Shown: piece after piece, positions 1-46,743 of the stretch
Layout of the letters: the number at the start of each line of letters is the position of its first letter
Numbering within the stretch: the stretch's first letter is position 1
NCBI RefSeq assembly: GCF_001570525.1
Contig: NZ_BBXC01000032.1
Coordinates: 1-64,000 of the forward strand
Direction: 5' to 3'
Length of the DNA: 64,000 bases
DNA from: Herbidospora sakaeratensis
GTDB lineage: Bacteria; Actinomycetota; Actinomycetes; Streptosporangiales; Streptosporangiaceae
Notes under the pieces: generated by a model
What the model saw: only the letters and a program-made list of their open reading frames with translations
The model's database searches: none
Told to the model about the DNA's origin: nothing
Position numbers and translations under genes: made by a program

Positions 1-3000
1 GTCGCCGGGCGGGCCGCCACCAGCGCGGCCCGCGCGGAGCCCAGCGCCAGCCCGAACAGCGGCGCGCTCTGCCCCGCGCCTGCCGGCACCAGCCCGGCCC
101 GTCCGGAAGCCGGGTCCTCCTCCCTGGGGCCCCAGGCGAGCGCGACGCCCGGCAGCCCGAGCGTGGCGCGGTGGTGCGCGAGCGCGTCGAGGTAGGCGCC
201 GGTCGCGGCCCGCGCGCCCTGCCCCGTCCCGCCCAGCACCCCGGAGACGTGCGGGGTGAGCAGCGCGAACAGGTCGAGGTCGAGGCCGAGGGTCAGTTCG
301 TGCAGGTTCCAGGCCGCGTCACCGGCGCGGCGCAGCCCGGTGGTGAACTGCTCGGGTGTGTACGACGTGAGCACCGACTCCACATCGGCGTCGGCGACGT
401 GCACGACCCCCGTCAGCGGATGCTCCGCCGGGAGCAGCGCCAGCGCCTCGGCCAGCGACTCCCGGTCGGCCGCCCCGTCGGCGGCGACCAAGACGTCGGC
501 CCCCAGCTCCCGCAACCACCCGGCCAGCTCGGCGTCGCCCCCCACCAGGAGCAGCCGGTCGCGCCCGAGAACGGTGACCAGATGCTCGGCCGCCGCCGCG
601 GCGAGGTCGCCGGACCCCGAGACCAGAACGGTCCCCGCCCGCCGCCGCACCTCCGCCGGGAAGTCGGCCGGAGCGGCGGTGACCAGGCGCGGGACGTGCG
701 CGACCCCCTGCCGCAACGCGACCTGCGGCTCATCGAGCGCGAGGGCGGCGGGCAGCACACGGAGCGACGACTCGTGCCCGTCGAGGTCGATCAGGGAGAT
801 CCTGCCGGGATGCTCCGACTGGGCTGCCCGGACCAGCCCCCAGACGGGCGCGGGCGCGAGGTCCTGCACGTCGCCGGCGGCGACGGTGACGGCGTGCCGG
901 GTGACGATCACGAGCCGGGCGGCCGAGTCGCCGGCCAGCCAGTCGAGCAGGCGGGGCAGCAGGGTGCTCGCCGAGGTGACCGGAAGCAGCACGAACGCGG
1001 CGTCGTCGCCCGTATCGGGCTCGGCGAGACCGGGGATGCCCGGGGCCGCCACCGTGTAGGAGACGGCGGGTTCGGCGGGCAACGGCGTCTCGGGCCAGGT
1101 GAGGGTCAGGAACCGGTCGGGCCGCGCGTCGGCGGGCCGCACCCCGTCGAGCCGCCGCAACCTGACTGACTCGACCGTGGCGACCGGAGCACCGTCGGAG
1201 GTGGTGACGACGAGGGCGAACTCGTGTTCCCCGATGCGGGTGGCGTGCAGCCGGAGCGCGCCGGCTCCCGGCGTGTGCAGGACCGCCCCGCGCCACTCGG
1301 CCGGCACGGCCGCCGTGCCCGCCTCGGCGAGCAGCGGTTGCAGCGCGGCGGTGAGGAGGGCGGGGTGCAGGGCGTGCCGGGGAGAGTCGGCGACGACCGA
1401 GCCACTCACCTCGGCGAAGACCTCGTCGTCGCGACGCCACAGCCGGGTCAGGCCGCCGAAGGAGGCGCCCTGGTCATGCCCGGCAGCGGCCAGAGCCGCG
1501 TGAACCTCCGCCACGTCGACCTCAACCGCACCGGGTGGCGGCCAAGCCGGAGCCGTCGCGCCTGGCGGCGCTGGCGTGTCAGGGACGGTCGGCGGGGCGG
1601 AGACGGGCGGCGCAACCGACGCGGAAAGCGGAACCGGCGCGGTTGTCGCGGTCAATGCGCCGGAGGCGTGGCTGGTCCAGGGCACCTCCTCGGCGTCGCC
1701 GGGGCGTGCGTACAGGGTGAAGGGGCGCTCGCCTCGTTCGTCCGGTGGGCCGACGGTGAGCTGGAGGTCCACGCCGCCCTCGGCGGAAAGGGGCAGGGGT
1801 GGCCCTGCCGCCAGGTCCGCGACCGCCAGGCCGCCGAGGGCGTGCCCTGCCTGGAGGGCCAGGTCGAGGTAGGCGGCCGGGGGCAGCACCGGGGTGCCGT
1901 GGATGGTGTGCTCGGTCAGCCACGGGTGGATGCGGGCGGCGGCCCGTCCGGTCAGCAGGAGGGTGTCGGTCGCGAGGGTGGTCGAGGCGGGCAGCAGGGG
2001 ATGGCGGGTGGCGCGAAGTCCCAGGCTCTCGGGGTCGCCGGGGGCGGCGGCGTCCTCCAGCCAGTAGCGCTCGCGCTGGAAGGCGTAGGTCGGCAGGTCG
2101 GTGACGCCCTGCTCCGGCAGGTGCCAGTCCACGTCGTGACCGCCGGTCTTCAGCGCGGCCAGGTTGAGGTGGAACTGGTGCAGCGTGCCCTTGTCGCGGC
2201 GCAGGGTGCCGGTGACCAGGAGGGCGGGGTCGTCGACGGTGTCCTGGACGGGCGTCGTGAGAACGGGATGGGGGCTCGCCTCGACGAAGGTGGTGTAGCC
2301 GTCGTCGACGAGCCGTTCGAGGGTCTGGTGGAAGTGGACCGGGCGGGCGAGGTTGTCGAACCAGTACTCGGCGGTGAGGTCGGCGACCTCGGTGGTGACG
2401 GTCGAGTAGAGGGGGACGGCGGCGGGTTGCGGCCGGATGCCGTCGAGCAGGGCCAGGAGTTCGTCGCGGAGGCGGTGGACGTGGGGGCTGTGGGAGGCGT
2501 AGTCGACCGGGATCCTGCGGGCGTCGAGGGTGCCCAGCAGGTGGTCGAGTTGGGTGGCGTCGCCGGCGATGACGGTGGCGTTGGGGCTGTTGTGGGCGGC
2601 TATGTGCAGGTCGTCGTAGGGGGCGAGGTGGTCGGCCAGGGCGGCGGCGCTCTGTGCGACGGAGGCCATGCCGCCGGTTCCGGCCAGGGCGAGCAGCGCC
2701 TTCGACCGGAGGGTGACGATCTTGGCGGCGTCGTCGAGGGTGAGCGCCCCCGCGATGTGGGCGGCGGCGATCTCGCCCTGCGAGTGGCCGATGACCGCGT
2801 CCGGGCGCACGCCGTGGTGTTCCCACAGACGCGCCAGGCTGGTCATGACGGCGAACAACGCGGGCTGGATGACGTCCACCCGATCGATGGGCGGGCCGTT
2901 CAGCACGTCGATCAGGTTCCAGCCCGCATGGGCCTCGATCGCCCGCGAGGCGGCCCGCAGGTGCTCGGCGAACACGGGAGAGGTGGCCAGCAGGTCCCGG

Positions 3001-4739
3001 GCCATCCCGTCCCACTGGGACCCCTGACCCGGGAAGACGAAGACCACCTTCCCGCGCGGCGCCGCCACCCCCCTGACCAGGTTCGGGTGCGGGCGGTCCG
3101 TGGCAAGCGCGTCGAGGGTCGCGAACAAGGCGGCCCGGTCGTCCGCGACGGCCACGGCCCGGTGCGGGAGCGCGGCCCGTCCCGTGGCGAGGGTGGGCGC
3201 GATGTGCTCAGGTTCCAGGTCGGGCCGGGCGGCGAGGTGGTCGCGCAACCGCCGTGCCTGCGCCGCCAACGCCTCGGCATTGTGCGCCGACACCAACACC
3301 GGCACCGGGCCGGACGTTCCGGCGGATGTCCGGTCGCCGGGCGGGCTCTCCTCCAGAACGACATGGGCGTTGGTGCCGCTGATCCCGAACGACGACACCG
3401 CCGCGCGGCGGGGACGGTCGCCGGATCTGCCCCACGGCCGCGCCTCGGTCAGCAGGTTCACCGCGCCCGTCGACCAGTCGACGTGCGGGCTGGGCTCGTC
3501 CACGTGCAGCGTCTTCGGCAGCACGCCGTGCCGCATCGCGTGCACCATCTTGATGATGCCGCCGACCCCGGCCGCCGCCTGCGTGTGCCCGATGTTCGAC
3601 TTCAGCGACCCCAGCCAGGCCGGTTCCTCCCGCTCCTGCCCATAGGTCGCGAGCAGCGCCTGCGCCTCGATCGGGTCGCCGAGGCGGGTGCCCGTCCCGT
3701 GCGCCTCGACGGCGTCCACGTCAGCGGGCGACAGGCCCGCGTCGGCGAGGGCCGCGCGGATGACGCGCTGCTGGGCGGGACCGTTCGGGGCCGAGAGCTG
3801 GCCGCTGGTGCCGTCCTGGTTGACCGCGGTGCCGCGCACCACCGCCAGGACCGGGTGGCCGTTGCGGACCGCGTCCGACAACCGCTCGACCAGGAGCAGG
3901 CCGACGCCCTCGCCCCAGCCCGTGCCGTCGGCCGCCGCCGCGAACGCCTTGCAGCGGCCGTCGGGCGACAGGCCGCGCTGGCGGCTGAACTCGACGAACA
4001 GGCCGGGCGTGGCGATCACCGTCGCGCCGCCCGCGAGGGCCAGGTCGCATTCGCCGGCCCGCAGCGCGCGGACCGCCAGGTGCAGCGCCACCAGCGACGA
4101 CGAGCAGGCCGTGTCGATCGTGATGGCGGGACCGACCAGGCCGAGCACGTACGACAGGCGGCCCGAGGCGACCGAGCCCGCGCTGCCGGTGCCGATGTAG
4201 CCCTCCAGCTCCTCGGGCGCCTGCCTGATCCGGCCGCCGTAGTCGGCGTACATGACCCCCGCGAACACGCCCGTCCGGGAGCCGCGCGCCGACTCCGGGT
4301 CGATGCCGGCGCGTTCGAACGCCTCCCAGGCGGTCTCCAGCAGAAGCCGCTGCTGCGGGTCCATGCTGACCGCCTCGCGGGGGCTGATGCCGAAGAAGCT
4401 CGGGTCGAAGTCGGCGGCGTCGTGCAGGAAACCGCCTTCCTTCGTGTACGTCCGCCCGACGCGCGCCGGGTCGGGGTCGTACAACGCGGGGACGTCCCAG
4501 CCCCGGTCGGCGGGGAACGGCGAGATCGCGTCCACGCCCTCGGAGACGAGCCGCCACAGGTCCTCCGGCGAGCGCACGCCGCCCGGGTAGCGGCAGGCCA
4601 TGCCGACGATCGCGATCGGCTCGTGGCGGGCCGACTCGACCTCCGACAACCGCTGCCGGGTCTGCAGCAGGTCGCCGGTGACCCTCTTGAGGTAGTCGCG
4701 CAGCCGGGCCTCGGTGGCGCCGGTCGTCTCGGTGGTCAT
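1..4739 (-). CDS. abyB2: Modular type I PKS, first module KS-AT-DH(dead)-KR(dead); 3' end outside window
   Basis: Next PKS in the assembly line, read to residue about 1579 with no stop. Residues 1-40 form a coiled N-terminal docking helix of the DEBS type ([13 protein letters not shown]), so it should take the chain from the PKS just upstream, whose stop lies 7 nt before this ATG. KS at about 41-460 has catalytic Cys212 in DTACSSS. AT at about 567-890 has GHSQGE and YASH, the methylmalonyl-CoA signature. DH at about 927-1217 keeps HxxxGxxxxP (His944), but the partner Asp is Thr1130 (LLTAALQP) and YGPxF reads QGASF. The KR Rossmann loop is SGSGDLAA, the Tyr position is Arg1510, the Asn position Gly1514, and the Ser position His. 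Both reductive domains therefore look inactive and the module should leave a beta-ketone, as needed for the abyssomicin C7 ketone. The symbol is by analogy with the aby cluster; ACP and later modules are not visible. Confidence 0.93.
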
Positions 4740-4746
4740 CGCGCCA

Positions 4747-7700
4747 TCACCTCTCCTCGTGGTCGGAACCGAGTTGCGTGTCGATGAGCTGGAAGAGTTC
4801 CTCGTCGGTGGCGTCGCGGACGACGTCCACCGGGCCGGGGGCCGGTGTCGTGGGGGCCGGGGCCGGGGCCGGGGGCGTGCCGCCGGGGAGCCGGAGGGCG
4901 AGTTCGCCGTGCAGGTGGGCGGCGAGCGCGGTGGGGGTCGGATGGTCGAACAGGAGCGTGGCGGGCAGCCGCAGCCCGGTCTCCACCGCGAGCCGGTTGC
5001 GCAGCTCGACGGCCGTCAGCGAGTCGAAGCCGAGGTCGAGCAGGCCGCGCTCCGACGGCACGGTCCGCCCCGACGGCAGCCGCAGCACGTCGGCGACCAC
5101 GTCCCGCACCCGCTTCAGCGCGAGCCCCGGCCGGTCGGCGATCGGCGCGCCGGTCAACGTCCTGACCAGCGGCGGAACACCCTCCTCCCGCTTCGCGGCC
5201 GGGGGTCTGGCGGCCACGAGGCGCGGCAGCCGCTCGAACCGGGCCGCGACCACGGCCGGGACGCCGCCCGCGAGCGCGGCGTCGAACAGGGCCAGCGCGT
5301 CGCCGGAGTCGAGCGGGGCGACGCCCGTGCGGGCGATCCTGGCCAGCTCGGCCGCGCCGAGCCCGCCCGCCAGGCCGCCCTCCTGCGCCCACAACCCCCA
5401 GGCGATGGACGTCGCGGGCAGCCCCAACGCGTGCCGGTGCCCCGCGAGGGCGTCGAGATAGGTGTTGGCGGCGGCGTAGTTCGCCTGCCCGGCGTTGCCG
5501 ATGACCCCGGCGACCGAGGAGAACACCACGAACGCGTCGAGCGGCCGGTGCCGGGTGAAATGGTGCAGGAAGTGCGCGGCGTCGGCCTTGGCGGTCAGCA
5601 CGGAGTGCAGCCGTCCGGGCGTGAGGTCGGTGACGGTCGTGTCGTCGAGCACGGCGGCGGCGTGCACGACCGCGCTGAGCGGCCGGTCGGCCGGGACGCC
5701 GTCGAGCAGCCGCCGCAACGCCACGGGGTCGCCGGTGTCGCAGGCCGCCACGACGGGCTCCGCGCCCAGCTCGGTCAGCCGCCGAACCAGATCGGCCGCG
5801 CCCGGGGCGGCCGGGCCGCGCCTGCTGACGAGCAGCAGGTGCCGCACGCCGTACCGGGTGACGAGATGCTCGGCCAGCAGCGCCCCGAGCGCGCCGGTGG
5901 CCCCGGTCAGCAGCACGGTCCCGTAGGCCCGGATCGGCGCGGGGTCCGTGCGCACCGGGACGGGGGCCAGCGCGGGCAGGTAGGCCCCGCCGTTCCGGAG
6001 GGCGACCTGGGGTTCCCGCAGCGCCAGCGCCACCCCGGGGTCGGCCGAGCCGTCGGTGTCGACGAGCACGAACCGGCCGGGATGCTCGGTCTCCGCCGTG
6101 CGCACCAGCCCCCACAACGCCGACTGGGCCAGCCCCGTGACGGGGTCGCCGTCGAGCACCCCGACCGCGTGGTGAGTCAGCACCGCGAGCCGGCCCGGCG
6201 CGTTCTTCTCCAGCCAGGCCTGGACGACCTCCAGCACCGCCGAGGTGACCGGCCCGTAGCCGGTGCCGCGCACGTCGAGCACCACGTCACCGGTCCCGGG
6301 CGCACGCAGGTGGTCGAGCGCCTCCCCGGCCGAGCGCAGCAGCGTGTAATGCGCGGCGGCGGGGCTCGACGTCCGGGTCCAGGCCACGCGGTGCAGCCCG
6401 CCCGACCGTTTCACCTGCACGGCCAGCTCGCCCTCCAGGACGACGCCGCCGTCGGGATTCCACACGAACAGGGCGAACCGGTCGCCGCCCTTCGGGGTCA
6501 GCCGCGCCCGGACGGTCTCGGCCGCCGGTTCGCCGCGCCGCACACCGGTCCACGAGAACGGCAACCGCACGGTGTCGCCGGCCAGCGCGAGCGGATGCAG
6601 GACGGCGTCGAACAGCACGGGATCGAAGCCCACCTCACCCCGGGTGACCTCGGCGAACAGGTCGTCGCCGTGCCGCCAGGCGGCGCGCAGGTTCCGGAAG
6701 GCGGGGCCGTAGCCGTAGCCGAGGGCGGCCAGCCGCTCGTAGGCGCCGTCGACGTCGACCGGCTCGCCGGGCGGCCACGCCTGCGGCGCCGCCGGTTCTC
6801 GCGGGCTGTCCCCGGTGAGGTGGCCGGAGGCGTGGGTGGTCCACGTGCCGCCGGGCGCGTCGTCGCGGGAGTGCACGGTCACGGCCCGCCGCCCGTCGGG
6901 CCCCGGCGCGGCGACCGCGACCTGGACGACGACCGCCCCCTCGACGGGGAGCGGCGCGAGCAGCGTGAGCTCCTCGACGACCGGCGCGCCTGCGCGGTCG
7001 CCCGCGTGCAGGGCCAGGTCGAGCAGGGCCGTGGCCGGGAGCAGGGGCGTGCCCGCGATGGCGTGGTCGGCCAGCCAGGGATGGCTGTGGACGGACAACC
7101 GCCCGGTGAGCACGATTCCATCGCCCGCCAGGTCGACGGCGGAGGTGAGCAGCGGGTGGCCGGGGTCGTCGTGGCCGGCCGGGCGCACGGGCGGCGGGTT
7201 GAGCCAGTAGCGCTCCCGCTGGAAGGGGTAGGTGGGCAGGTCGACGGGGCTCGTGGTGCCGGGTGTTTTCCAGTCGACGTGGACGCCGGTGGTGTGGAGG
7301 GTGGCGAGGAGCCGGGTGAGGTCCTCGGGCTGACCACGGCGGAGGGTGGGGTGGGCGTCGTGGTCGGGGAGGAGGGCGGTGAGGACGGCGTCGGGCCCGA
7401 TTTCGACGAAGGTGTGGATGTCGGTGAGGGTGGTGATGGCGTCGGTGAAGCGGATGGGTTCGCGGACGTGCCTGACCCAGTGATCAGGGTTGTTGAGCCC
7501 GCCGAGTTGTCCGGTCCGGTCGGAGACGATGGGGATGGTCGGCTCGGTGAAGTGCAGCGTGTCGAGGACCTGTCGGAACTGGTCGAGCATGGGTTCCATC
7601 AGGGGTGAGTGGAAGGCGTGGCTGACGGTCAGCCTCTTCACCTTCGCGCCCTGGGCGCGGTGGATGACCTGCTCGACGGCCTCATGAGTGCCGGAGACGA

Positions 7701-10700
7701 CGGTGGCATGCGGGCCGTTGATCGCGGCGAGTGAGATGTGGTCGCTGAGCCCATCCAGGAGCTCCAACGCGGCGGCCTCGCCGATCGAAAGCGCCGCCAT
7801 CGCCCCGCCGGGTGGGAGTTCTTGCATGAGCTGGGCGCGGGCGGTGACGAGTGTGGCGGCGTCGGCCAGGTTGAGGACTCCGGCGATGTGGGCGGCGGCG
7901 ATGGAGCCGACCGAGTGTCCGAGCACGGCGTCGGGCCGCAGTCCGTGGTGTTCCAGCAGCCGGTAGAGAGCGGTTTGCAGCGCGAAGAGGGCGGGCTGGG
8001 TGTAACGGGTCTGGTTGAGCAGTTCGCCGCCGGTGAAGATGATCTCTTTGAGCCCGGGTTCCAGCACGGCGAGCACCTCGTCGAAGGCGGCGGCGAAGAC
8101 CGGTTCGGCCTTGTAGAGCTCACGCCCCATCCCGGGCCGCTGGCTGCCCTGCCCGGTGAATAGGAACGCCGTCTTCGGCTCGGTGGCCTCCCCCGTGACC
8201 AGCGCGGGGTGCCCGTCGCCGTCGGCCAGAGCCGTCAGCGCGGCCAGCACCTGGGCCCGGTCCTCGGTGACGACGGCCGCCCGGTGGGCCAGCGCGGCCC
8301 GGCCGGTGGCGAGCGTGCGGGCGGTCGCGGCGAGGTCGGGCGCGGGATCGGCGGCGAGGTGGTCGTGCAGGAGACGCGCCTGCGCCCGCAGCGCCTCCGG
8401 GCTGTGCGCCGACAGGAGCAGCGGTCCAGGCACCACGTCGGGCGTGACGTCGGGCTCCAGCACCACATGAGGCTTGGTCCCGGCGGGCTGCGGCTCCTCC
8501 AGGACTACATGGGCGTTGGTGTCGGCGGGCTGCGGTCCCTCCAGGGCTACATGGGCGTTGGTGCTGGCGGGCTGCGGCTCCTTCAGGGCTACCTGCGTGT
8601 TGGTGCTGGCGGGCTGCGGTCCCTTCAGGGCTACCTGCGTGTTGGTGCTGGCGGGCTGCGGTCCCTGCAGGGCTACATGGGCGTTGGTGTCGGCGGGCTG
8701 CGGTTCCTCCAGGACCACGTGGGCGTTGGTGCCGCTGATGCCGAACGACGAGACGGCGGCCCGGCGTCGCCGGTTCGGGTCGGGCGACCAGGTGACGGGC
8801 TCGGTGAGCAGCTGGACCGCGCCGCTCTCCCAGTCGACGTGCGGGGTGGGCTCGTCCACGTGCAGGGTGCGGGGGAGCAGGCCGTGCCGCATTGACTGGA
8901 CCATCTTGATGATGCCGCCGACCCCGGCCGCCGCCTGCGTGTGCCCGAGGTTCGACTTCAGCGAGCCCAGCCAGGCGGGCCGGTCCCGGTCCTGCCCGTA
9001 GGTGGCGAGGAGGGCTTGAGCCTCGATGGGGTCGCCGAGGCGGGTGCCGGTGCCGTGGGCCTCGACGGCGTCGACGTCGGCAGCGGTCAGGCCGGCGTTG
9101 GCGAGCGCCTGGCGGATGACCCGTTCCTGCGAGGGGCCGTTGGGTGCGGTCAGGCCGTTGGAGGCGCCGTCCTGGTTGACCGCCGTGCCCCGGACCACGG
9201 CCAGAATCGGGTGGCCGTTGCGGCGCGCCTCGGAGAGGCGTTCGACCAGGAGCAGGCCCGCGCCCTCCGACCAGCCGGTGCCGTCGGCGGCCGCCGCGAA
9301 CGCCTTGCAGCGGCCGTCGGGGGAGAGTCCGCGCTGGCGGCTGAACTCCACGAACGTCGCGGGGCTGGCCATCACCGTCACCCCACCCGCCAAGGCGAGG
9401 TCGCACTCGCCCTGCCGCAACGCCTGGACGGCCAGGTGCAGCGCCACCAGCGAGGAGGAGCAGGCCGTGTCGACGGTGACGGCCGGGCCCTCCAGCCCGA
9501 ACGTGTACGCCACCCGCCCCGACGCCACGCTCCCCGCGCTGCCGCTGACCAGGTATCCCTCGAAACCATCGGGCGCTTGGGCGGCCTGGTGCAGGCGGGC
9601 GCCGTAGTCGTTGTACATGACCCCGGCGAACACGCCCGTGCGCGAGCCGCGCAGCGTGCCGGGGTCGATGCCGGCCCGCTCGAACGTCTCCCACGCCGTC
9701 TCCAGCAACAACCGCTGTTGCGGGTCGATCGCGGCCGCCTCCCGGGGGCTGATGCCGAAGAACCCGGCGTCGAACCCGGCGGCGTCGTACAGGAAACCGC
9801 CGTCACGGGCGTAGCTGGTGCCGGGGGAGGCGGGGTCCGGGTCGTACAGGGACGCGAGATCCCAGCCCCGGTCGGCGGGGAAGGGGCCGACGGCGTCGAC
9901 GCCGTCGGCGACGAGCCGCCACAGGTCCTCCGGCGAGGCCACTCCGCCGGGGTAGCGGCAGGCCATCGCGACGATCGCGATCGGGTCGTCGTCGGCCCGC
10001 GTCACCGGGGCGCCCGCCGCCGGCTGGGGCGTCTCGTCGGCGAGCCGCGAGCCCAGCCAGGTCGCGAGGGCGGCCGGGGTCGGGTGGTCGAAGACCAGGG
10101 TGGTGGGCAGTTTCACGCCGACGGCGGCGCTCAGCCGGTTGCGCAGGTCGACGGCGGCCAGCGAGTCGAAGCCCAGGTCGGTGAAGGCGCGCCCGGCCGC
10201 GACGGGCTCGGCCGACGCGTGCCCGAGCACGGTCGCGGCGGTCTCCCTGACCAGGCCGAGCAGGTCGGTCGCCGCGCGGCGTGGCGCGGGTACCGCCTGC
10301 CGCCGCGGCACGAGCGACCGCAACGGCGGCGGCACCGGCGCGGTCACCGCCTTCGTGTCGAGGCGGGCCGTCACGACCACGGGACGGTCGGCCCATTCGG
10401 TCCGCAAAGCCGCGTCGAACAGGGTCAGCGCGTCGTCGCGGGAGAGCGGCGCGACGCCGGTCCGGGCCAGCCGGGCCAGGTCGGCCGCCGACAGGTGGGA
10501 CGCCATGCCGTCGTCCTGCTCCCACAGGCCCCACGCGAGCGAGGTGGCGGGCAGGCCGAGCGCGTGGCGGTGGGCGGCCAGCGCGTCGAGGTAGGCGTTG
10601 GCGGCGGCGTAGTTGGCTTGCCCGGCCGTGCCGATGGTGCCGGTGATGGACGAGAACAGCACGAACGCGTCGAGATCACGGGTGAGGCGGCTCAGGTGGC

Positions 10701-35409: not shown

Positions 35410-36140
35410 AGGTTCTCCAGGGCCTCTTTCACCTCGGTCAGCACGTCGGCGGCCTCGGCGCCGTCGATCACCCGGTGGTCGAACGCGAGGCTCAGCCGCA
35501 TCACGGGCGCGACGGCGGGCGTCCCGTCGCGCACCACGACCCGGTCGGTGATCCGGCCGACGCCGAACGTGGTGGTGGTGCCGCCGACCGAGTGGAAGGA
35601 GTCGACCGCCCGGTGGCCGAGCGAGGTCACCGCGAACGTGCCGGTCAGGTGGGGCCGCAGGCTCAGCGACGCGGCCGCTTTGCGGAATCTCCGCCGGCCG
35701 AGGGCCCACGGCGCGGCGTGCAGCCGCCGCACCCCCTCGAAGTCCTTCAGCTTCTCCGGGTCGCCGTGCCGCACCCGCGTCAGATGGGCGTGGACGTCGG
35801 CGAGGGCGGCCTCCTGGAGATTCGGCACGACCGTGCCGAGCACCACCCGCCGCCCGTTGAGCGTGCGGTCGAGGGTCACCTTGCCGCTGACGAACGGATA
35901 GCGGGCCACCCTCGGCCGGAACCGTCCCTGGATCGCCGCGTTGGCCTCCGGGTGCTTGGCCAGCACCCGCCCGGCGGCGTGCAGGACGTAGGCGGTGATC
36001 GCGTGGCCGTGGACGGCGCGGTGCGCCAGCACGGCGGTCATGTCGACCTCGGTGTCGAGGAAGACCGGTGAGAAGTCGCGGATGACCTCCAGGAAGAACA
36101 GCGTGTGCCGCCGCTCCCGATGGGGCGGGACGCCGGTCAT
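35406..36140 (-). CDS. abyA4: E2-type acyltransferase acetylating the tetronate (AbyA4-like)
   Basis: A 244-residue stand-alone catalytic domain of the 2-oxoacid dehydrogenase acyltransferase (E2) family. The catalytic motif is FDHRVIDGAEA near the C-terminus; GTFAVTSLG and the preceding strands match the CAT-like fold. No lipoyl or subunit-binding domain is present, as is usual in tetronate clusters, where the enzyme moves acetyl from acetyl-CoA to the hydroxymethyl of the tetronate. The product is the substrate for the adjacent eliminating enzyme. Both ends overlap neighbours by 4 nt. Confidence 0.92.
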   Translation of the reverse strand: MTGVPPHRERRHTLFFLEVIRDFSPVFLDTEVDMTAVLAHRAVHGHAITAYVLHAAGRVLAKHPEANAAIQGRFRPRVARYPFVSGKVTLDRTLNGRRVVLGTVVPNLQEAALADVHAHLTRVRHGDPEKLKDFEGVRRLHAAPWALGRRRFRKAAASLSLRPHLTGTFAVTSLGHRAVDSFHSVGGTTTTFGVGRITDRVVVRDGTPAVAPVMRLSLAFDHRVIDGAEAADVLTEVKEALENL

Positions 36141-36364
36141 GACGTGGTCGCCAGTTCGTAGACCGCCACCAGGCTGGGGGCCTCCAGCACCCGGGCGAAC
36201 GGCACCGGCCGGCCCGTCCGGCGTTCCAGCAGCGTGCAGAGCGTGAGCAGGTGCACCGAGTCCCACGCGTCGACCGTGTCGAGCGACCGGCCGAGGTCGT
36301 CCTCGGTGACCGGGAGGGCCAGCTCGTCGCGCAGCAGCGCGACGTACTCCTCGACGGAAATCAT
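36137..36364 (-). CDS. abyA3: Discrete acyl carrier protein for the glyceryl unit (AbyA3-like)
   Basis: A 75-residue ACP. The phosphopantetheine Ser is in the motif DAWDSVHLLTL about half-way along, after an acidic first helix. It should carry the D-1,3-bisphosphoglycerate-derived glyceryl unit loaded by the FkbH-like enzyme encoded just upstream, then deliver it to the KASIII-like condensing enzyme. Start and stop overlap neighbours by 4 nt (ATGA). Confidence 0.93.
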   Translation of the reverse strand: MISVEEYVALLRDELALPVTEDDLGRSLDTVDAWDSVHLLTLCTLLERRTGRPVPFARVLEAPSLVAVYELATTS

Positions 36365-39237: not shown

Positions 39238-39642
39238 TCAGCCGGCGAGCAGGATGCGCGCCTCTGCCGAGGCCCGCACGCCGGTCATGCGCCAGGTGCG
39301 GAACCCGGTGAGGCCCTCGTACCGGCCGCCGGTGCCGGTGGCCGGGTAGTAGACCCACTCGCTGGTCCGCACGTCGTTGAAGTCGGCCCAGCCCTCGGCG
39401 TGGATGGTGCCGTCGGTCAGCGTGATGTCCTCGGTGTAGTAGGTCATCAGGCCGCCGTCGCCGGGGCGCACGTACTCGATGCGGAACGAGCCGTGGGAGG
39501 TGCCCAGGAGGGTGCCGTCCTCGTCGTAGATCTCGTCGTCGAACGTGCCGGTCTGCCCGATCTGCGGGTCGGCGACCGTGACGTCGTCGACCACCTTCAC
39601 CACGATCTCCTTGGGCGCGCGGATCACGATCTGCTCGGCCAT
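39238..39642 (-). CDS. abyU: AbyU-like spirotetronate cyclase ([4+2] cyclase, allene-oxide-cyclase-like barrel)
   Basis: A 134-residue beta-barrel protein closely matching the abyssomicin cyclase AbyU as I remember it, e.g. EIVVKVVDDV, GSFRIEYVRP, EGWADFNDVRTSEWV, and FRTWRMTGVR near the end. AbyU folds the linear tetronate triene and joins the terminal diene to the exocyclic methylene, giving the spiro-cyclohexene. The barrel interior Tyr/Trp residues occur in MTYYTEDITL and TWRM. The start is ATG 39642, with AGAGGA upstream; a longer frame into the RHS stop lacks support. No signal peptide. It lies 17 nt after the RHS gene and 4 nt before the KASIII gene. This is the strongest single marker for an abyssomicin-type product. 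Confidence 0.95.
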   Translation of the reverse strand: MAEQIVIRAPKEIVVKVVDDVTVADPQIGQTGTFDDEIYDEDGTLLGTSHGSFRIEYVRPGDGGLMTYYTEDITLTDGTIHAEGWADFNDVRTSEWVYYPATGTGGRYEGLTGFRTWRMTGVRASAEARILLAG

Positions 39643-39659: not shown

Positions 39660-42170
39660 TCAGTCCAGGGAAAAACGGGCCGGGGGTTCGCCCGCGATCA
39701 GGGGGATGCGGTCGCCCGCGCACTCCGGCAGCGGAGGCTCCGGCGGGCCCGGGAAGAAGCGCTCGACCGGGTGACCGGCCAGCACGGCCCAGAAGTCGTG
39801 CCGGGCCGGGGTTCCGGTGTTGACGGGGTCGTTGTCGCGGAAGGTGTAGGGCGCGTAGGCGCGGCGGCGCGGGTCGGGCTGGGTGAAACGGCCCCAGTAG
39901 CCGTTGTAGAGGTGGTCGTCGAGCACGTGCGCGCTGCGCAGCAGCTGGTAGGCGCCCAGGAACCGCAGCGGGTTCAGGGCGGCGGCCGGGCCCTCGGCGG
40001 TGACCGCGCCGTGGGGGGTGTAGCGGTAGCGGGCGGTGATCTCGCCGTCGGGGCCGACCAGGGCCAGCACCGAGCCGCGGTGGTCGGTCACGATCCAGTG
40101 GTGCTGCCCGCCGGGGGCCGTCAGGGCGATCGGCGTGCCATCGGGAAGGCGCACCAGGTCGGTGGGCGCGCCGTCGTCGACGACGCGGAGCAGCCCGAGC
40201 TCCGACCAGGTCAGCACGTGGGTGACGGTCCGGCCGTCGACGGTGGTCTCGGTGATGCGACGGGGGGTGCGCTGGTCGAGGCCGTCGTAGGAGACGTCCA
40301 CGACCCGGACCCCGCCGAAGACGCCGGTGAGGGTCTGGCGGGTGGGGCTGTAGGCGAACGAGCCGGTCGGGTTCACCTCCTCGACGAAGTCGCCCGCGCC
40401 GTCGTAGGTGAACTCGGTGTCGCCGAAGCGGGTCACCTGCCCGGCCGCGTTCAGCGTGAAGGCCACCTGGCCCAGCCGGACCAGGTTGTTGGCGCGGTCG
40501 TAGGCGTACTCGGTCTCGCCCGCCCTGATCAGGCGGCCGAGGCCGTCGTAGGCGTGGTCGACGGTCTCGCCGTCGAGTTCGGCGGTGCGCAGCAGGCCGC
40601 CCTCGTAGGCGTACCGGGTGGTCAGGCGCGGCCGCCCGTCGGGGCCGCGCACGGTGAGCGCGGTGCGGCGGCCCGACGCGTCGTGCTCGATCTCCTGTAC
40701 GGCCGCCCCCAGGTCGACCCGGACCAGCCGGCCGGCGGCGTCATGGGTGAGCCGGGCGACGTGCCCGGCCGGGGTGGTGACCGTCGCGGGCCGCCCCTGC
40801 TCGTCGTGGGTGTAGGACGTGGTGCCGCCCTCGGTGGTGACGGCGAGCAGGTCGCCGTCGGGGGAGTGTTCGTAGCGCACCTCCTCGTCCGGCTCGCCGT
40901 CGGCGGTGCGGACCGACCGGCTGATCCGGGGACCGCGGCCGGTCTGGGCCCACGTGTGGGCCCGCGACCAGCCGGGGCCGGAGCGGCGGGTGACCCGGCC
41001 CAGGCCGTCGTGGGAGAACGCGGCCAGGACCGTGCCGGTCGCCTCGTCGACGACCTCGGTCAGGCGGCCGGCCGGGTCGTGCCGGTAGCCGACCGTACGG
41101 CCGTCGCCGCCGGTGACGGCGGTGACGCGCGACAGGCCGTCATAGGCGTACCGGACCGGGCCGAGCGGCGCGGGCGGGGTGACCGAGGTCAGGTTCCCGG
41201 CGGCGTCGTAGCCGAAGGAGGTGGTGTGGCCGTTGCCGTCGGTGCAGGTCAGCAGGCGGCCGTGCACCGGGTGGTAGGTGCGGATGTCGAGGGGTTCGTC
41301 CCGGCCGGGCACCAGGGCGCGCACCGGGCGGCCCTGCTCGTCGGCGTCCAGCCGCAGTTCGCGGCCGGCCGGGTCGCGCAGGACGGTGCGCGGCCCGTAC
41401 TCGGCGCGGCTCTCCTCGCCGGTCGGCAGCCGCAGCGTGGTCAGCCGCCCCTCGGGGTCGTATTCGCGGGTGACAGTGTTGCCGAGGGAGTCGGTCTCCT
41501 CGTGCAGGAGGTCGTCGCCGGTCCAGGCCCAGCGGCGGCCGTCGCCGAGCCCGGTCAGCCGGCCCTTCTCGTCGAACTCGTGGGTGCTCACCCGCCCGGC
41601 GGTGTCGGTCACCGTCGTGCGGCCCGGGGAGTAGGCGAAGGCGAGCCGGCCGCCGCCCCAGTCGAGCCCGGTCACCGCCCGGCCCTCATAGGTGAAGGTC
41701 AGCGTGCCGCCGGCCGGGTCCTCGACGGCGGTCAGGCGGTCGTCGTCGTCCCAGCGGAACAGGGTCGCGGCCCCGGCGGCGTCGGTGTGCCGGACGGGGC
41801 GGCCGGCCAGGTCGTACAGGAAGAAGGCGCCCTGCGCCCCGAGCGGGTCGACGATCTTCGTGATCAGGCCGCCGGTGTCGAGGTGCAGGGTGACGACGCG
41901 GCCCTGGTCGTCGATGACGACGGGTTCGCCGGTCCGCCCCCGCGTCGGCGCGGGGTCGAGCCGCCAGCCCGGGCCGAGCCCGGCGTCGTGCCGGGAGTCG
42001 CCCCGGTACTCCCGGACGAGCCGCAGATGGGTGCGGGCGCCGGCGACCACCAGGTCGAGCCGGCGCACGACCGGCGTGCCGTCGCGCAGGTCGACCAGCA
42101 CCTCGGCGGAGTCGCCGAGCGGCACGCGCCGGACGGCGTGGCGGGCGTGGACGTCCCGGAGTGTGGACAC
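39660..42170 (-). CDS. RHS/YD-repeat protein within the tetronate operon
   Basis: About 836 residues, mostly YD repeats such as GRLTEVVDEATG, GLGRVTRRSG and YDGLGRLIRAGETEYAYD, ending in the RHS core motif YNGYWGRFTQPDP. Only about 60 residues follow, so there is no recognisable C-terminal toxin. No signal peptide or membrane segment is visible. RHS proteins form hollow beta-cages; here the gene heads the operon that encodes the cyclase and tetronate enzymes, so a role in or around biosynthesis or export is possible, but its function is unknown. I choose GTG 42170 (GAGGGG 10 nt upstream) because the CTTTAG motif would otherwise sit only 15 nt before the alternative ATG at 42212. I have a weak memory of an Rhs-type gene in other abyssomicin clusters but cannot confirm it. 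Confidence 0.88.
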   Translation of the reverse strand: MSTLRDVHARHAVRRVPLGDSAEVLVDLRDGTPVVRRLDLVVAGARTHLRLVREYRGDSRHDAGLGPGWRLDPAPTRGRTGEPVVIDDQGRVVTLHLDTGGLITKIVDPLGAQGAFFLYDLAGRPVRHTDAAGAATLFRWDDDDRLTAVEDPAGGTLTFTYEGRAVTGLDWGGGRLAFAYSPGRTTVTDTAGRVSTHEFDEKGRLTGLGDGRRWAWTGDDLLHEETDSLGNTVTREYDPEGRLTTLRLPTGEESRAEYGPRTVLRDPAGRELRLDADEQGRPVRALVPGRDEPLDIRTYHPVHGRLLTCTDGNGHTTSFGYDAAGNLTSVTPPAPLGPVRYAYDGLSRVTAVTGGDGRTVGYRHDPAGRLTEVVDEATGTVLAAFSHDGLGRVTRRSGPGWSRAHTWAQTGRGPRISRSVRTADGEPDEEVRYEHSPDGDLLAVTTEGGTTSYTHDEQGRPATVTTPAGHVARLTHDAAGRLVRVDLGAAVQEIEHDASGRRTALTVRGPDGRPRLTTRYAYEGGLLRTAELDGETVDHAYDGLGRLIRAGETEYAYDRANNLVRLGQVAFTLNAAGQVTRFGDTEFTYDGAGDFVEEVNPTGSFAYSPTRQTLTGVFGGVRVVDVSYDGLDQRTPRRITETTVDGRTVTHVLTWSELGLLRVVDDGAPTDLVRLPDGTPIALTAPGGQHHWIVTDHRGSVLALVGPDGEITARYRYTPHGAVTAEGPAAALNPLRFLGAYQLLRSAHVLDDHLYNGYWGRFTQPDPRRRAYAPYTFRDNDPVNTGTPARHDFWAVLAGHPVERFFPGPPEPPLPECAGDRIPLIAGEPPARFSLD

Positions 42171-42446: not shown

Positions 42447-45143
42447 ATGACGGTCACCGTTCGTGCTCATGAGATCCGGCGCCCCGCCCTCGTCAGAGAC
42501 CTGGAGTTCGACCGCCTGACCCATCTCGTCCGGGCCGCGCGCGACCGCCACGGCCGGGTCGCCGAACTGACCGGCGACCCCGGCGCGGGCAAGTCGTGGT
42601 TGCTCGGCGGCCTCGCCGGGGAGGCCCGCCGCGACGGCGTCACGGTGCTGGCGGGCCGCTGCTCCGAAGCGGGCGCCGAGCAGCCCTTCCACCCCTTCCT
42701 CCAGGCTCTGGCCACCTGGCGCGGGCCCGGCGGCCGCATCGTGCCCGCCGCCGCCGCGCTGATCGACGTGCTCGGCTGCGCGGGGGAGGCCGAGACCGCC
42801 TCGTTCGCCGGCCGCCACCGGCTCTTCGTCACGGTGCGCCGGGGGCTGGCCGACTGCCTGGCCGCCGCGCCCGGCGACGTGCTGCTGCTGCTCGACGACG
42901 TCCACTGGGCCGACCCGATGTCCGTCGCGCTGCTGGAGATGCTCATCCGGCGGCCCGTCGACGGCCCTCTGACGACCGTCGTCGCGCACCGCCCGCGCCA
43001 GTCGCCGGTCAGGCTGCGCTCGGTGCTCGACCTCGGCGGCGTCGCCTCGGTCGCGCTCGGCCCGCTGAGCCACGGGCAGTCGGCCCTGCTGCTCGACGGC
43101 GTCGACCTCGCCGCGGTCCGGGGCCTGCATGACGACGCGGTGGGCAACCCCCTCTACCTGACGGCGCTGGCCGGCCTCCCGGCCGACGACGGCGGCCCCT
43201 GGACCCGCGGCAGCCTCGGCGCCCGGCTGCTGGCCGAGACCGAGCCGCTGCCGGGGGAGGCCCGGCTGGTGCTCGACGCCGCGGCCGTGCTCGGCGACGT
43301 CGTCGACGTCGTCGCGGTGGCCGCCGTGGCCGTGGTCGACCGCGACGTCGCCTGCCGGGTGCTGACCGAACTCCGGCGGCGCGACCTGATCCGGCCCGTC
43401 CCCGGCAGCCCCGGCACCCTCACCTTCCGCCACCGGCTCGTCCGGCTCGCCCTGTACGCCGCCGTCGACCCCTGCTGGCGGTCGGCGGCGCACGGCAGGG
43501 CCGCCCGGCACCTGTCGGCCACCGGCGCGCCGCCCGCCGAGGTGGCCCGGCACGCCGAACGCTCCGGGATCCTCTCCGCCGACCCCGGGCTGCTGACGGC
43601 CGCCGTCCACGACGCGCTGCGCAACGGCCGTCCGGCGGAGGCCGCCCACTGGGTGAGCTCGGCGCTGCGGGCGCACCGCGCCCACGGCGGCGAACCCGGC
43701 CCCGAGTCGTGGCGGCCGGTCGTCCGGGCGCTGGCGGCCACCGGCGACGCCGCCGGGGTGCGCGAGCTGGCCCGGCAGGTGCTCGGCGGCCCGGCCGGGG
43801 CCCGCTCCGTCGCCTTCCTGTCGTCGGTGACGGCCGCGCTCGGCGACGCGGGCGAGGCCCAGGCGCTCGTGCTGGCCGAACTGACCGCGTGCGGTGACGC
43901 CGACCCGGCCGCCCGCGCGCTGCTCCAGGTGCAGGCGCAACTCGCCAAGGTGCTGGCCGGGCAGGTCCCGGCGCGTGCCGACGTCGAGGCGCTGGCCAGG
44001 AACGCCGCGTACGAGGACGACCTCACCGGGGCGGGCCGGCTGGCCCTGCTCGGCATGTGCAGGGTCATCGGCGGCCACCCCACCGGGGCCGCCGAACCGC
44101 TGCGGGCCGCCGCCCGGCTCCTCGACGGGCGGGAGACGCCGGCCGGCTCCCGCGAGGCCGCGCACCTGCTCGTGCTGGCGTGGGCCGAGGCCCTCATGGG
44201 CTGGTACGACCAGGCCCGCGCGCACGCCGAACGCGCCCTGTCGGGGGCCCGCGAACGCGGCGAGGCCCACCTGATGGCCCCGCTGCTCGGCACCCTGGGC
44301 TACGTCCACTACCACCGGGGCCGCCCGGCCGACGCGCACGCCGTCTCGCTGGAGGCCCGGTCGGTCGCCCACCGCATCGGCCGCGACGACCACGTCGGCC
44401 TGGCCGACGCGCTGATCGCCGCCTCCTGGGCCCGGCTCGGCCGCCCCACCCTGCCGACCGGCCGCGGCGACCACCTCGTCGCGGCCAGGACCCCGATCAA
44501 CGCCCTGCTGTTCGCCGAGGCCGCGCTGACCGGCGGCGAACCCGGCCGCGCGCTGGCCGTGCTGCTCCCGCACGAGCCGGAGCCGGGCGACCTGCCCGAG
44601 CAGGTGCCCGAGCCGGTCCAGGTCTACGCGGCCTGGTGCTACGAGCTGCTGGCCGCCGCGACCCTGCGCGCCGACGACGGCCCGCCCGCCCGCGTCGCCC
44701 GCTGGGCCGAGGCCGCCGCCGACGCCGCGCTCGCCGTCGGCCTGCCGGAAGCGGCCGGATACGCCCTGCTCGCCAAGGGCCACGCGCTCGCGCACGCCCG
44801 CCGGTGGGAACCGGCCGCCCGCTGCTACGAGGACGCGCTGGCCCTCCTCGGCGACGGCCCGCCGGGCGGCGCGCGGGCCCGGGACCTCGCGCGCGCGGCC
44901 GTCCACCAGGCGTCCCCCGGCCCGCAGGCCGGGCTGAACGAGCTCACCTCACGGGAGCGGGAGGTCGCCGACCTGGCGGGCGAGGGGCTGAAGACCAAGG
45001 ACATCGCCGAACGGCTGCGCATCAGCCCCCGCACGGTCGACGTCCACCTCAACCGCATCTACGCCAAGCTCGGCGTCGGCTCCCGTGCCGCGCTGGTGCG
45101 CCTGCTCAGCGTGTCGGAACCGGCCGGACCAGGTCCGCGATGA
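42447..45143 (+). CDS. LAL-type LuxR transcriptional regulator
   Basis: An 898-residue large ATP-binding LuxR regulator. Walker A is GDPGAGKSW at about 43-51, Walker B is LLLLDDVHW at about 147-155, followed by a long TPR-like helical part. The C-terminal LuxR helix-turn-helix (about 833-888) begins LTSREREVADLAGEGLKTKD and includes ISPRTVDVHLNRIYAKLGV. LAL proteins are usual pathway activators in macrolide clusters; abyssomicin clusters also have one. I use ATG 42447 with GGGGAGG upstream, not the TTG at 42414 inside the palindrome. It is divergent from the RHS-led operon, which is a likely target. Its 3' end overlaps the convergent thioesterase gene by 38 nt. Confidence 0.93.
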   Translation: MTVTVRAHEIRRPALVRDLEFDRLTHLVRAARDRHGRVAELTGDPGAGKSWLLGGLAGEARRDGVTVLAGRCSEAGAEQPFHPFLQALATWRGPGGRIVPAAAALIDVLGCAGEAETASFAGRHRLFVTVRRGLADCLAAAPGDVLLLLDDVHWADPMSVALLEMLIRRPVDGPLTTVVAHRPRQSPVRLRSVLDLGGVASVALGPLSHGQSALLLDGVDLAAVRGLHDDAVGNPLYLTALAGLPADDGGPWTRGSLGARLLAETEPLPGEARLVLDAAAVLGDVVDVVAVAAVAVVDRDVACRVLTELRRRDLIRPVPGSPGTLTFRHRLVRLALYAAVDPCWRSAAHGRAARHLSATGAPPAEVARHAERSGILSADPGLLTAAVHDALRNGRPAEAAHWVSSALRAHRAHGGEPGPESWRPVVRALAATGDAAGVRELARQVLGGPAGARSVAFLSSVTAALGDAGEAQALVLAELTACGDADPAARALLQVQAQLAKVLAGQVPARADVEALARNAAYEDDLTGAGRLALLGMCRVIGGHPTGAAEPLRAAARLLDGRETPAGSREAAHLLVLAWAEALMGWYDQARAHAERALSGARERGEAHLMAPLLGTLGYVHYHRGRPADAHAVSLEARSVAHRIGRDDHVGLADALIAASWARLGRPTLPTGRGDHLVAARTPINALLFAEAALTGGEPGRALAVLLPHEPEPGDLPEQVPEPVQVYAAWCYELLAAATLRADDGPPARVARWAEAAADAALAVGLPEAAGYALLAKGHALAHARRWEPAARCYEDALALLGDGPPGGARARDLARAAVHQASPGPQAGLNELTSREREVADLAGEGLKTKDIAERLRISPRTVDVHLNRIYAKLGVGSRAALVRLLSVSEPAGPGPR

Positions 45144-45861
45144 GGCGGGCCTTGCCCGGCGCGTCGTCGGCGACGAAGAAGTGCCCGCCGGGGAAGACCC
45201 GCAGGTCGAACCCGCCGGTCGTGTGGCGCCGCCAGGCCGCCACGTCGGCGACGGGGGCCTCCTCGTCGTGCTCGCCGGCGAAGGCCGTCACGGGGCAGGA
45301 GACCGGCGCGCCCGGCGTGTCGCGGTAGCCCGCCAGGGCCCGGTGGTCGGCGCGCAGCGCGGGCAGCACCAGCTCCAGCACGTCGGGGTCGGTGAGCCGG
45401 TCGGCGTCGGTGCCGCCCAGCGCCCGCACCCGGGCGACGAGCGCGGCGTCGTCCAGCGGCTCGGGGGAGGGCCGCCACCGCGAGGGCGCGCGGCGGCCCG
45501 ACAGGATCAGCCGGGCGGGCGCGCCGCTCCTCCCCTCCAGCCGGACGGCCACCTCGTAGGCGAGGGAGGCCCCCATGCTGTGCCCGAGGAACACGCGGGG
45601 CCGGGCCGCCGGCCGGCCGAGCACCCCGGCCAGGCGGTCGGCCAGGTCGTGCAGGTCGGTCGCCGCCGGTTCGCGGTGGCGGTCCTGCCGGCCCGGGTAC
45701 TGCACGGCCAGCGTCTCGACGCCGGGGGCCATCAGGGCCGAGAGCGGATACCAGTAGGCCGCCGCGCCGCCCGCGTGCGGGAAGCAGACCAGTTCGGCCG
45801 GGGCCGACGGGGCGGCGTGGTAGCGGCGCAACCAGACGTCGGCGGTCGACTGGCCGGTCAA
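45106..45861 (-). CDS. abyT: Type II thioesterase
   Basis: A 251-residue external thioesterase of the RifR/TEII type. Motifs are LVCFPHAGGAA near the N-terminus, nucleophile GHSMGASLA, acid in FAGEHDEEAP and His in GGHFF. Its role is to remove stalled acyl groups from the PKS ACPs. I start it at TTG 45861, which overlaps the SARP stop as TTGA, the same coupling seen as ATGA or GTGA elsewhere in this cluster; no ATG or GTG in frame lies nearby. Abyssomicin clusters include a TEII (AbyT). Confidence 0.9.
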   Translation of the reverse strand: MTGQSTADVWLRRYHAAPSAPAELVCFPHAGGAAAYWYPLSALMAPGVETLAVQYPGRQDRHREPAATDLHDLADRLAGVLGRPAARPRVFLGHSMGASLAYEVAVRLEGRSGAPARLILSGRRAPSRWRPSPEPLDDAALVARVRALGGTDADRLTDPDVLELVLPALRADHRALAGYRDTPGAPVSCPVTAFAGEHDEEAPVADVAAWRRHTTGGFDLRVFPGGHFFVADDAPGKARLIADLVRPVPTR

Positions 45862-46631
45862 CTGGCCGCACGCAGGTCGAGCAGGGCGTCGGAGGTCAGG
45901 ATCGCGTGGTGCAGCCGCCGCAGCGCCGGGCAGGGCTGCACCCCGAGCTCGGCCTGCAGCACCTGCTGCGCGGTGCGGTAGACCTGCAGCGCGTCGGCCT
46001 GCCGCTCCGACCGGTAGAGGGCCAGCATGAGCTGCCGGTAGAACGACTCCCGGAGCGGGTGCTGGGTGATCAGCCCGTTCAGCGGCCCGATCACCTCGCG
46101 GTGCCGTCCGAGCGCCGTGCGCGCCTCGATCGAGAGCTCCAGGCAGTCGAGCCGCTCCTCCTCCGCCCACGCGGCGAACGCGGCCAGCACGGGCCCGTCG
46201 GGCAGCTGGTCGAGCACCGGGCCGCGCACCAGCCGCAGCGCCTCCTCGAACTGGGCGAGCGCCTCCTCGTACCGCCCGGCCTGCAGGCACATCCGGCCGT
46301 GGGCGACGGCCCGCTGGAAGTCGGCCACGTCGTACTCGGCGTCGCGCAGCCGCAGCACGTAGCCCGACGAGCGGGTGACGATCGTCTCCCCGTCGCCGTG
46401 CCCGGCGGCGGCCAGGAACTTGCGCAGCTGCGAGATGTAGACGTGCAGCGCCGCCGAGGCCCGCTGGGGCGGCGACTCCCCCCACAACTCGGTGATGAGC
46501 TGCTCCTTGGTGGTGACCCACTCCGCCCTGACGAGCAGGATGGCCAGGGTCGTCTCCATCTTCGGAGCGCTGAGGAAATGGGACTCCCGGCCGTCGGACA
46601 CACGGAGCGGCCCAAGCAGTTCGTAACGCAT
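45858..46631 (-). CDS. SARP-family pathway activator
   Basis: A 257-residue SARP: an OmpR-like winged helix (about 1-90, with LLGPLRVSDG and YISQLRKFL) followed by a bacterial transcriptional activation domain (about 95-250, with ALYRSERQADALQVYRT). Short SARPs of this size typically activate one biosynthetic cluster by binding direct heptamer repeats. It is co-translated with the type II thioesterase. AGAGG precedes the ATG at 46631. An upstream pair of direct repeats (46703-46731) is a candidate control site. An AbyI/AbyR-like role is likely, but I cannot say which. Confidence 0.93.
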   Translation of the reverse strand: MRYELLGPLRVSDGRESHFLSAPKMETTLAILLVRAEWVTTKEQLITELWGESPPQRASAALHVYISQLRKFLAAAGHGDGETIVTRSSGYVLRLRDAEYDVADFQRAVAHGRMCLQAGRYEEALAQFEEALRLVRGPVLDQLPDGPVLAAFAAWAEEERLDCLELSIEARTALGRHREVIGPLNGLITQHPLRESFYRQLMLALYRSERQADALQVYRTAQQVLQAELGVQPCPALRRLHHAILTSDALLDLRAAS

Positions 46632-46702
46632 CGGCACCTCTGGCGGCAGTGGACTGATGCCTTCCACCCTGTTCGGCCGGGCCGCTCCGCACATCAGCGA
46701 AA

Positions 46703-46731
46703 CTACGTATATCCCCTAAAAACCTACGTAT
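46703..46731. promoter_or_regulatory. Direct repeat pair upstream of the SARP gene
   Basis: CTACGTAT at 46703-46710 recurs at 46724-46731, 21 bp start to start, i.e. on the same helix face. Each copy holds the palindrome TACGTA. CCTAC (46723-46727) also pairs with GTAGG (46735-46739). The 112-bp gap between the F420-type gene and the SARP should hold the SARP promoter. Confidence 0.45.
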
Positions 46732-46743
46732 TTTGTAGGGAAA

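What the first reader, a model, noticed from the sequence alone, without database searches (positions are those of the whole stretch)
1..46740. Abyssomicin-type spirotetronate cluster
An AbyU-like cyclase, the five-gene glyceryl/tetronate cassette, a KSQ-started malonate-malonate-malonate-methylmalonyl assembly line, P450-ferredoxin pair, Opp-type transporter, MFS/TetR pair, LuxR, SARP and TEII all occur together. Known abyssomicins use five acetates, two propionates and a glyceryl unit; the visible modules account for four acetates (starter plus three) and one propionate in the right order. The cluster continues to the left of position 1, where one more propionate module with full reduction and one acetate module are expected.
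Basis: partly seen in the sequence, partly recalled or inferred. Interest (0 to 1): 0.9.

Follow-up and report, generated by a model that had tools for sequence, protein, structure and literature searches.

The report
Abyssomicin-type antibiotic gene cluster
An actinomycete bacterium of the genus Herbidospora carries what looks like a complete gene set for an abyssomicin-like antibiotic, a kind already known from related bacteria, with two extra genes for an acyl-adding and an ester-cutting enzyme whose role is untested.

Summary
Window 1-46,631 holds most of an abyssomicin cluster with nearly the gene content of the characterised aby cluster. In Herbidospora daliensis the two ends map 38 bases apart inside one open frame. 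The line reads KSQ(mal)/mal/mal/mal/mMal (KR and DH dead)/mMal (fully reducing)/mal, as published for aby. The cyclase shares 98 of 130 aligned residues with AbyU; the window P450 is closest to AbyV. This predicts an atrop-abyssomicin C-type (type I) chain. It is a new member of a known kind: Iglesias et al. 2020 already list Herbidospora among genera with type 1a/1b clusters. Not in the aby table are a membrane acyltransferase (25,043-26,185) and an esterase (22,794-23,654). In 12 clusters compared, the acyltransferase lies between abyF4 and abyV in 12 and the esterase is present in 11 (seven of the 12 were picked after an acyltransferase hit). I read them as an O-acylation/deacylation step; that is inference.

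The parts
3..4739 (-). abyB2 homologue, 5' part (module 5: docking, KS, AT methylmalonyl YASH, dead DH, dead KR); runs off the contig; continues at L009 (G000:C8) 3-6581 with an ACP and module 6 KS-AT(YASH)-DH-ER-KR-ACP
   Evidence: Pfam; motifs; continuation
4747..22695 (-). abyB1 homologue, 5982 aa: KSQ-AT(mal)-ACP, then three KS-AT(mal, HAFH)-DH-KR-ACP modules
22794..23654 (-). alpha/beta hydrolase (Abhydrolase_3, hormone-sensitive-lipase type), not in the aby table
   Evidence: present in 11 of 12 compared clusters; HGG, GxSxG, Asp and His motifs invariant in 13 aligned rows
23657..23848 (-). 4Fe-4S single-cluster ferredoxin
   Evidence: 12 of 12 compared clusters
23865..25046 (-). cytochrome P450, abyV homologue
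   Evidence: best solved match 7QAN, E 8.3e-150, which is AbyV
25043..26185 (-). membrane acyltransferase (Acyl_transf_3), not in the aby table
   Evidence: homologues between F4 and V in 12 of 12 compared clusters
26182..27786 (-). abyF4-like ABC transporter ATPase
27783..28589 (-). abyF3-like permease
28586..29524 (-). abyF2-like permease
29521..31152 (-). abyF1-like solute-binding protein (SBP_bac_5)
31204..32211 (-). abyE-like luciferase-family monooxygenase
32208..33638 (-). abyD-like MFS exporter
33718..34371 (+). abyC-like TetR regulator
34366..35409 (-). abyA5 homologue, alpha/beta hydrolase
35406..36140 (-). abyA4 homologue, 2-oxoacid dehydrogenase acyltransferase-like
36137..36364 (-). 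abyA3 homologue, discrete ACP
   Evidence: 20.6 bits, just under the Pfam cut-off of 20.8; identity rests also on its place
36361..38214 (-). abyA2 homologue, FkbH-domain glyceryl-ACP synthase
   Evidence: no Pfam match; FkbH TIGR01686 287.9 bits
38211..39233 (-). abyA1 homologue, KAS III-like
   Evidence: tree
39238..39642 (-). abyU homologue, spirotetronate [4+2] cyclase
39660..42170 (-). abyK homologue, RHS/YD-repeat protein
   Evidence: abyK described in PMC3625739 (passages)
42447..45143 (+). abyH-like LuxR-family regulator
45106..45861 (-). abyT-like type II thioesterase
45858..46631 (-). abyI-like SARP regulator; last cluster gene on this side
   Evidence: boundary

Best explanation
A complete, probably functional type I abyssomicin cluster of about 57.4 kb (window 46,631 down to 1, a gap of about 38 bases, then C8 1-10,760). 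KSQ decarboxylates malonyl-ACP to the acetate starter; modules 2-4 add three malonates with ketoreduction and dehydration; module 5 adds methylmalonate and leaves the ketone because its KR and DH are dead; module 6 adds methylmalonate and reduces fully; module 7 adds an unreduced malonate. A2/A3 make glyceryl-ACP, A1 releases the chain as a tetronate, A4/A5 acylate and eliminate to the exocyclic alkene, U does the [4+2] cyclisation, K supports production, and P450 V with a ferredoxin epoxidises before the ether bridge forms. D and F1-F4 transport, C, H and I regulate, T edits. Shown here: gene content, order, domain motifs, contig linkage. Inferred from the published aby and abm work: each enzymatic step. 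Inferred without a precedent that I found: the acyltransferase and the esterase add and remove an O-acyl group on an intermediate or on the product.
For: Domain and AT order as published for aby (PMC3625739) and unlike abm, where AT2 and AT5 take propionate (PMC5819245 section 13). Module 5: KR without GxGxxG and with the Lys and Tyr positions changed; DH with Asp to Thr, one of the two changes reported for aby, while its His is kept. Cyclase 98 of 130 aligned residues identical to AbyU; Glu19, Arg122, Tyr76, Met126, Trp124 and Phe41 (named in passages of PMC11268479 and PMC10946715) are kept, as are positions 95 and 106 (recalled); AbyU E 2e-65 against AbmU 2e-16. P450 nearest 7QAN = AbyV. 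Join: C32 base 1 and C8 base 1 map to 56402 and 56441 in H. daliensis, inside one open frame 51349-62940. Deleting abyK cut abyssomicin to about 30% in M. maris (PMC3625739). In Herbidospora G038, which has no PF18678 match, homologues of genes next to both cluster ends lie 4.7 kb apart, one of them inverted.
Against: No compound, transcript or enzyme assay from this strain. Among the genes scanned I found no second SARP like abyR and no flavin reductase like abyZ in the cluster. The module 2 KR has GGTGGLA where GxGxxG is expected. The extra acyltransferase and esterase mean that the end product may not be atrop-abyssomicin C itself. The aby cluster was compared through its published table and PDB chains, not through its DNA record; the abs gene table was not seen. 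The gap of about 38 bases is an estimate from H. daliensis.
Confidence: 0.92

Rival explanations
1. A type II (abm-like) abyssomicin cluster, giving the enantiomeric core.
For: Shares the tetronate cassette, cyclase family, Opp and MFS transporters and a ferredoxin beside a P450, which abm also has.
Against: AT order differs from abm; the cyclase is far closer to AbyU than to AbmU; an RHS gene like abyK is present, while abmK is a PPTase; S. abyssomicinicus (abi) branches outside the 20-row clade.
Confidence: 0.04
2. A larger or different spirotetronate (kijanimicin, chlorothricin or tetronomycin class).
For: Homologues of A1-A5 and shorter YD-repeat proteins occur in such clusters too (PMC3625739, passages).
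Against: Seven modules only, and C8 goes on with non-PKS genes; no sugar-biosynthesis gene among the cluster genes scanned; A. kijaniata A1 57% identical against 67% for S. abyssomicinicus, and in a distant clade.
Confidence: 0.02
3. A decayed, non-producing cluster.
For: No expression data; odd glycine motif in the module 2 KR.
Against: The genes are open and the catalytic motifs inspected are kept outside module 5; the cyclase family is found in 6 of 7 Herbidospora genomes searched, own included.
Confidence: 0.05

Closest known systems
aby cluster, Micromonospora (Verrucosispora) maris AB-18-032 (atrop-abyssomicin C)
   Same: seven modules on three genes with the same AT order, dead KR/DH in module 5, A1-A5, U, K, H, I, T, C, D, E, F1-F4, V
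   Different: auxiliary genes all lie upstream of the PKS genes, with a second P450 downstream (on C8; not compared with the AbyX sequence itself); extra acyltransferase and esterase; no abyR- or abyZ-like gene found among those scanned
Type 1b abyssomicin clusters of Iglesias et al. 2020 (PMC7176366)
   Same: abyU near A1-A5 and beside abyK; conserved blocks upstream of the PKS; an extra P450 downstream; Herbidospora is one of the genera named for types 1a/1b together
   Different: the main text (parts 1-5 of 6, and a word search) does not discuss such an acyltransferase or esterase; the supplement could not be read and the strain is not identified
abm/abi clusters (S. koyangensis, S. abyssomicinicus)
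   Same: tetronate cassette, cyclase family, Opp and MFS transporters
   Different: AT2/AT5 propionate instead of AT5/AT6; AbmU- rather than AbyU-type cyclase in abm; no acyltransferase match in the S. abyssomicinicus genome

Membership tests
type I abyssomicin cluster (aby-like) | AbyU-type cyclase | tested here: met
   98/130 aligned residues identical to AbyU, eight inspected residues kept; activity not tested
type I abyssomicin cluster (aby-like) | abyA1-A5 glyceryl/tetronate cassette | tested here: met
   A3 by a sub-threshold ACP match plus its place
type I abyssomicin cluster (aby-like) | seven modules: mal x4 (KSQ first), mMal, mMal, mal | tested here: met
   with C8 linked by synteny
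type I abyssomicin cluster (aby-like) | inactive KR and DH in module 5; ER in module 6 | tested here: met
type I abyssomicin cluster (aby-like) | AbyV-type epoxidising P450 | tested here: met
   best solved match 7QAN; activity not tested
type I abyssomicin cluster (aby-like) | production of an abyssomicin with a 15R core | not testable with these tools
   needs fermentation, LC-MS and NMR
Iglesias type 1b arrangement | conserved blocks all upstream of the PKS, extra abyV copy downstream | tested here: inconclusive
   Position met (definition in Table 2). The paper calls the downstream P450 a copy of abyV; here it is 53% identical to the window P450 and scores higher with 7DI3 than with AbyV
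type II abyssomicin cluster (abm-like) | AT2 and AT5 methylmalonyl; AbmU-type cyclase | tested here: not met

The most novel reading that the evidence does not exclude
A whole clade of abyssomicin clusters (Herbidospora, Acrocarpospora, Streptomyces, Actinacidiphila and relatives) makes an O-acylated abyssomicin, or passes through an acylated intermediate, using a conserved membrane acyltransferase and a partner esterase that the characterised aby cluster lacks.
Probability: 0.4. Interest if true: 0.45.

Novelty: new member of a known kind. Interest (0 to 1): 0.32.

Why it matters
It gives a type I abyssomicin cluster, linked across a contig break, whose polyketide chain can be predicted module by module, and it points to a conserved two-gene addition that could yield acylated abyssomicins, which I did not find in the papers searched. 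Abyssomicin C inhibits p-aminobenzoate formation in Gram-positive bacteria (abstract of PMC3625739). As a cluster it is ordinary for its kind.

Tried and rejected
Exact overlap of the C32 and C8 ends: none of 10-399 bases, and no shared 20-mer between the last 2,000 and first 3,000 bases; answered through H. daliensis synteny. Resistance by a second target copy: matches to the pabB model (other chorismate-binding enzymes included, none over its cut-off) number 6 in the own genome, 6 in G038 without the cyclase, 6 in G039-G042, 4 in G043 and 5 in G001, so no extra copy goes with the cluster. Acyl group as a simple self-protection mask on the C11 hydroxyl: weakened, because PMC6100094 (passages) says that this hydroxyl is not needed for activity and lists acetyl abyssomicin C among active derivatives. 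A different extender in modules 5/6 of the relatives: an artefact of my pattern (YASHT missed), corrected. The second luciferase-like gene 46744-47601 and the SpoU gene 47650-48159 as members: rejected; the luciferase gene stands beside the cluster in H. daliensis, H. solisilvae and H. yilanensis but was not found in the stretches seen next to it in H. mongoliensis, Acrocarpospora and the other genera, which reach only 1-6 kb beyond abyI (about 16 kb for H. mongoliensis). The MR_MLE, ApbA and FMN_dh genes on C8 as members: rejected, present in G038. Solved relatives of the acyltransferase: none up to E 10.
Full report
Setting. The window is G000:C32:1-64000; C32 is 67,237 bases long, so window position 1 is a contig end. 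G038-G043 are listed as the same genus as the window genome, and G039, G041 and G042 match Herbidospora contigs by length, for example G039 C1 (1,536,888 bases) and NZ_BBXF01000001.1 of H. daliensis. The window is therefore from Herbidospora (Streptosporangiaceae). The species is not told; one search says that records of the own genome may be left out.

Gene content. Genes were called with a codon-usage model and most were scanned against Pfam, ten of them also against NCBIfam. From 46631 down to 1 the order is: SARP (I), TEII (T), LuxR (H, opposite strand), RHS/YD-repeat protein (K), AOC_like cyclase (U), A1-A5, TetR (C, opposite strand), MFS (D), luciferase-like monooxygenase (E), Opp transporter F1-F4, acyltransferase family 3, P450 (V), ferredoxin, Abhydrolase_3 esterase, PKS gene B1, PKS gene B2 (cut by the contig end). 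The acyltransferase and the esterase have no counterpart in the published aby table (PMC3625739, section read). [quoted passage not shown] The table does not list abyU, which PMC7176366 does. The same paper mentions a putative lipase/esterase in a related Frankia alni cluster and suggests an editing role (passage).

The assembly line. B1 has KSQ (Gln for Cys) and four malonyl-type ATs (HAFH); the module 5 AT carries YASH. KR5 lacks the nucleotide-binding motif, and its Lys and Tyr positions are changed; DH5 has Asp changed to Thr but keeps its His. The aby paper reports module 5 inactivation too, by His to Leu and Asp to Thr in DH and Lys to Ile and Tyr to Val in KR. KRs of modules 2, 3, 4 and 6 carry the LDD motif.

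The missing end. C8 begins with an ACP, then KS-AT(YASH)-DH-ER-KR-ACP, then a separate gene docking-KS-AT(HAFH)-ACP, then on the other strand a second P450. C32 and C8 do not overlap. In H. daliensis, where the cluster is on one contig, C32 base 1 maps to 56402 and C8 base 1 to 56441, inside one open frame of 3,864 codons. Two leftover bases, 38 and two more make 42, so the frame would be kept.

Boundaries. In Herbidospora G038, which has no PF18678 match, homologues of the luciferase-like gene 46744-47601 (inverted) and of the MR_MLE-ApbA-FMN_dh genes that follow the second P450 lie 4.7 kb apart. The cluster is thus C32 1-46,631 plus C8 1-10,760, about 57.4 kb. One flank is inverted in G038, so this is not a clean empty site.

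Relatives. PF18678 matches occur in 43 of 341 genomes of the family, own included, and in 6 of 7 Herbidospora. The tree of AbyA1 has 81 rows: 79 of the 80 loci (L114, partial, dropped by my length filter), the own protein and unnamed G219. The own protein pairs with H. daliensis inside a clade of 20 rows (support 100/99) from Herbidospora, Acrocarpospora, G219, Streptomyces, Actinacidiphila and Frankia; Micromonospora wenchangensis is next, S. abyssomicinicus further out, A. kijaniata far away. The M. maris sequence is not in the tree.

The acyltransferase and esterase. Of 14 other stretches laid out, 12 carry the abyssomicin order, and in 12 of 12 the acyltransferase, P450 and ferredoxin stand in the same place; the esterase is in 11 of 12 (not found in S. 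iconiensis). Five of the 12 (G039, G041, G042, G001, G219) had been fetched for their cyclase before the acyltransferase was looked at; the other seven were fetched because one search had found the acyltransferase, so they are not an unbiased sample. Taking the 20-row clade instead, 19 of 20 have a homologue of at least 54% identity in the genome (for H. galbida and H. yilanensis this assumes that they are G040 and G043); Frankia sp. EI5c has none, and in Frankia sp. AiPs1 it is on another contig. Of the 21 named relatives searched, 17 have some match, several of them weaker paralogues, and four have none: Frankia EI5c, S. abyssomicinicus, Parafrankia colletiae and Actinokineospora auranticolor. 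The remaining two stretches were fetched for weaker hits: M. wenchangensis shows the acyltransferase alone in the 7 kb seen, Frankia sp. AiPa1 an acyltransferase-esterase pair beside I, A2 and A3 homologues. The acyltransferase keeps an Arg and a His of its first segment in 15 of 15 aligned rows; the esterase keeps HGG, GxSxG, Asp and His in 13 of 13. That these residues are catalytic is recalled family knowledge. The nearest solved esterases include a lipase (7WOL) and heroin esterase. Together they suggest an O-acyl group put on and taken off. Against a simple masking role stands the statement that the C11 hydroxyl is not needed for activity (PMC6100094, passages). Paper searches: abyssomicin + acyltransferase + acylated gave 4 papers, and spirotetronate + O-acyltransferase + abyssomicin gave 2; from titles and abstract openings none is about such a gene. 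The library lacks most subscription journals.

PKS in relatives. In the 11 other stretches the legible ATs agree with mal-mal-mal-mal-mMal-mMal(-mal): eight show six or seven ATs (seven only in H. daliensis), H. solisilvae shows five, Actinacidiphila four and S. iconiensis three.

Novelty. Iglesias et al. 2020 (PMC7176366, parts 1-5 of 6 read; word search) name Herbidospora among genera with type 1a/1b abyssomicin clusters and count three Herbidospora strains with the cyclase. Whether this strain is one of them could not be checked. The search for Herbidospora with abyssomicin gave 3 papers. The cluster is a new member of a known kind, perhaps already listed.

Noticed in passing
G000 contigs C14:1-74 kb, C28:3-95 kb, C7:258-306 kb: Many further ketosynthase domains in long open frames (up to 7,487 codons), i.e. 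other large polyketide loci in the same genome.
   Followed up: no
window 50368-54411: 1,347-aa protein with a BTAD domain, an nSTAND1 NTPase and WD40 repeats, outside the cluster.
   Followed up: no
G038 C8:464-469 kb (L204): Herbidospora without the cyclase has homologues of genes from both cluster flanks 4.7 kb apart, one inverted.
   Followed up: partly
L191 (Frankia sp. AiPa1, G360 C161), about 4.5-6.4 kb: A divergent esterase-acyltransferase pair beside SARP, A2 and A3 homologues in another tetronate-like locus.
   Followed up: partly
L009 14054-16852: Two neighbouring genes with CBM96 carbohydrate-binding modules just beyond the cluster flank.
   Followed up: no
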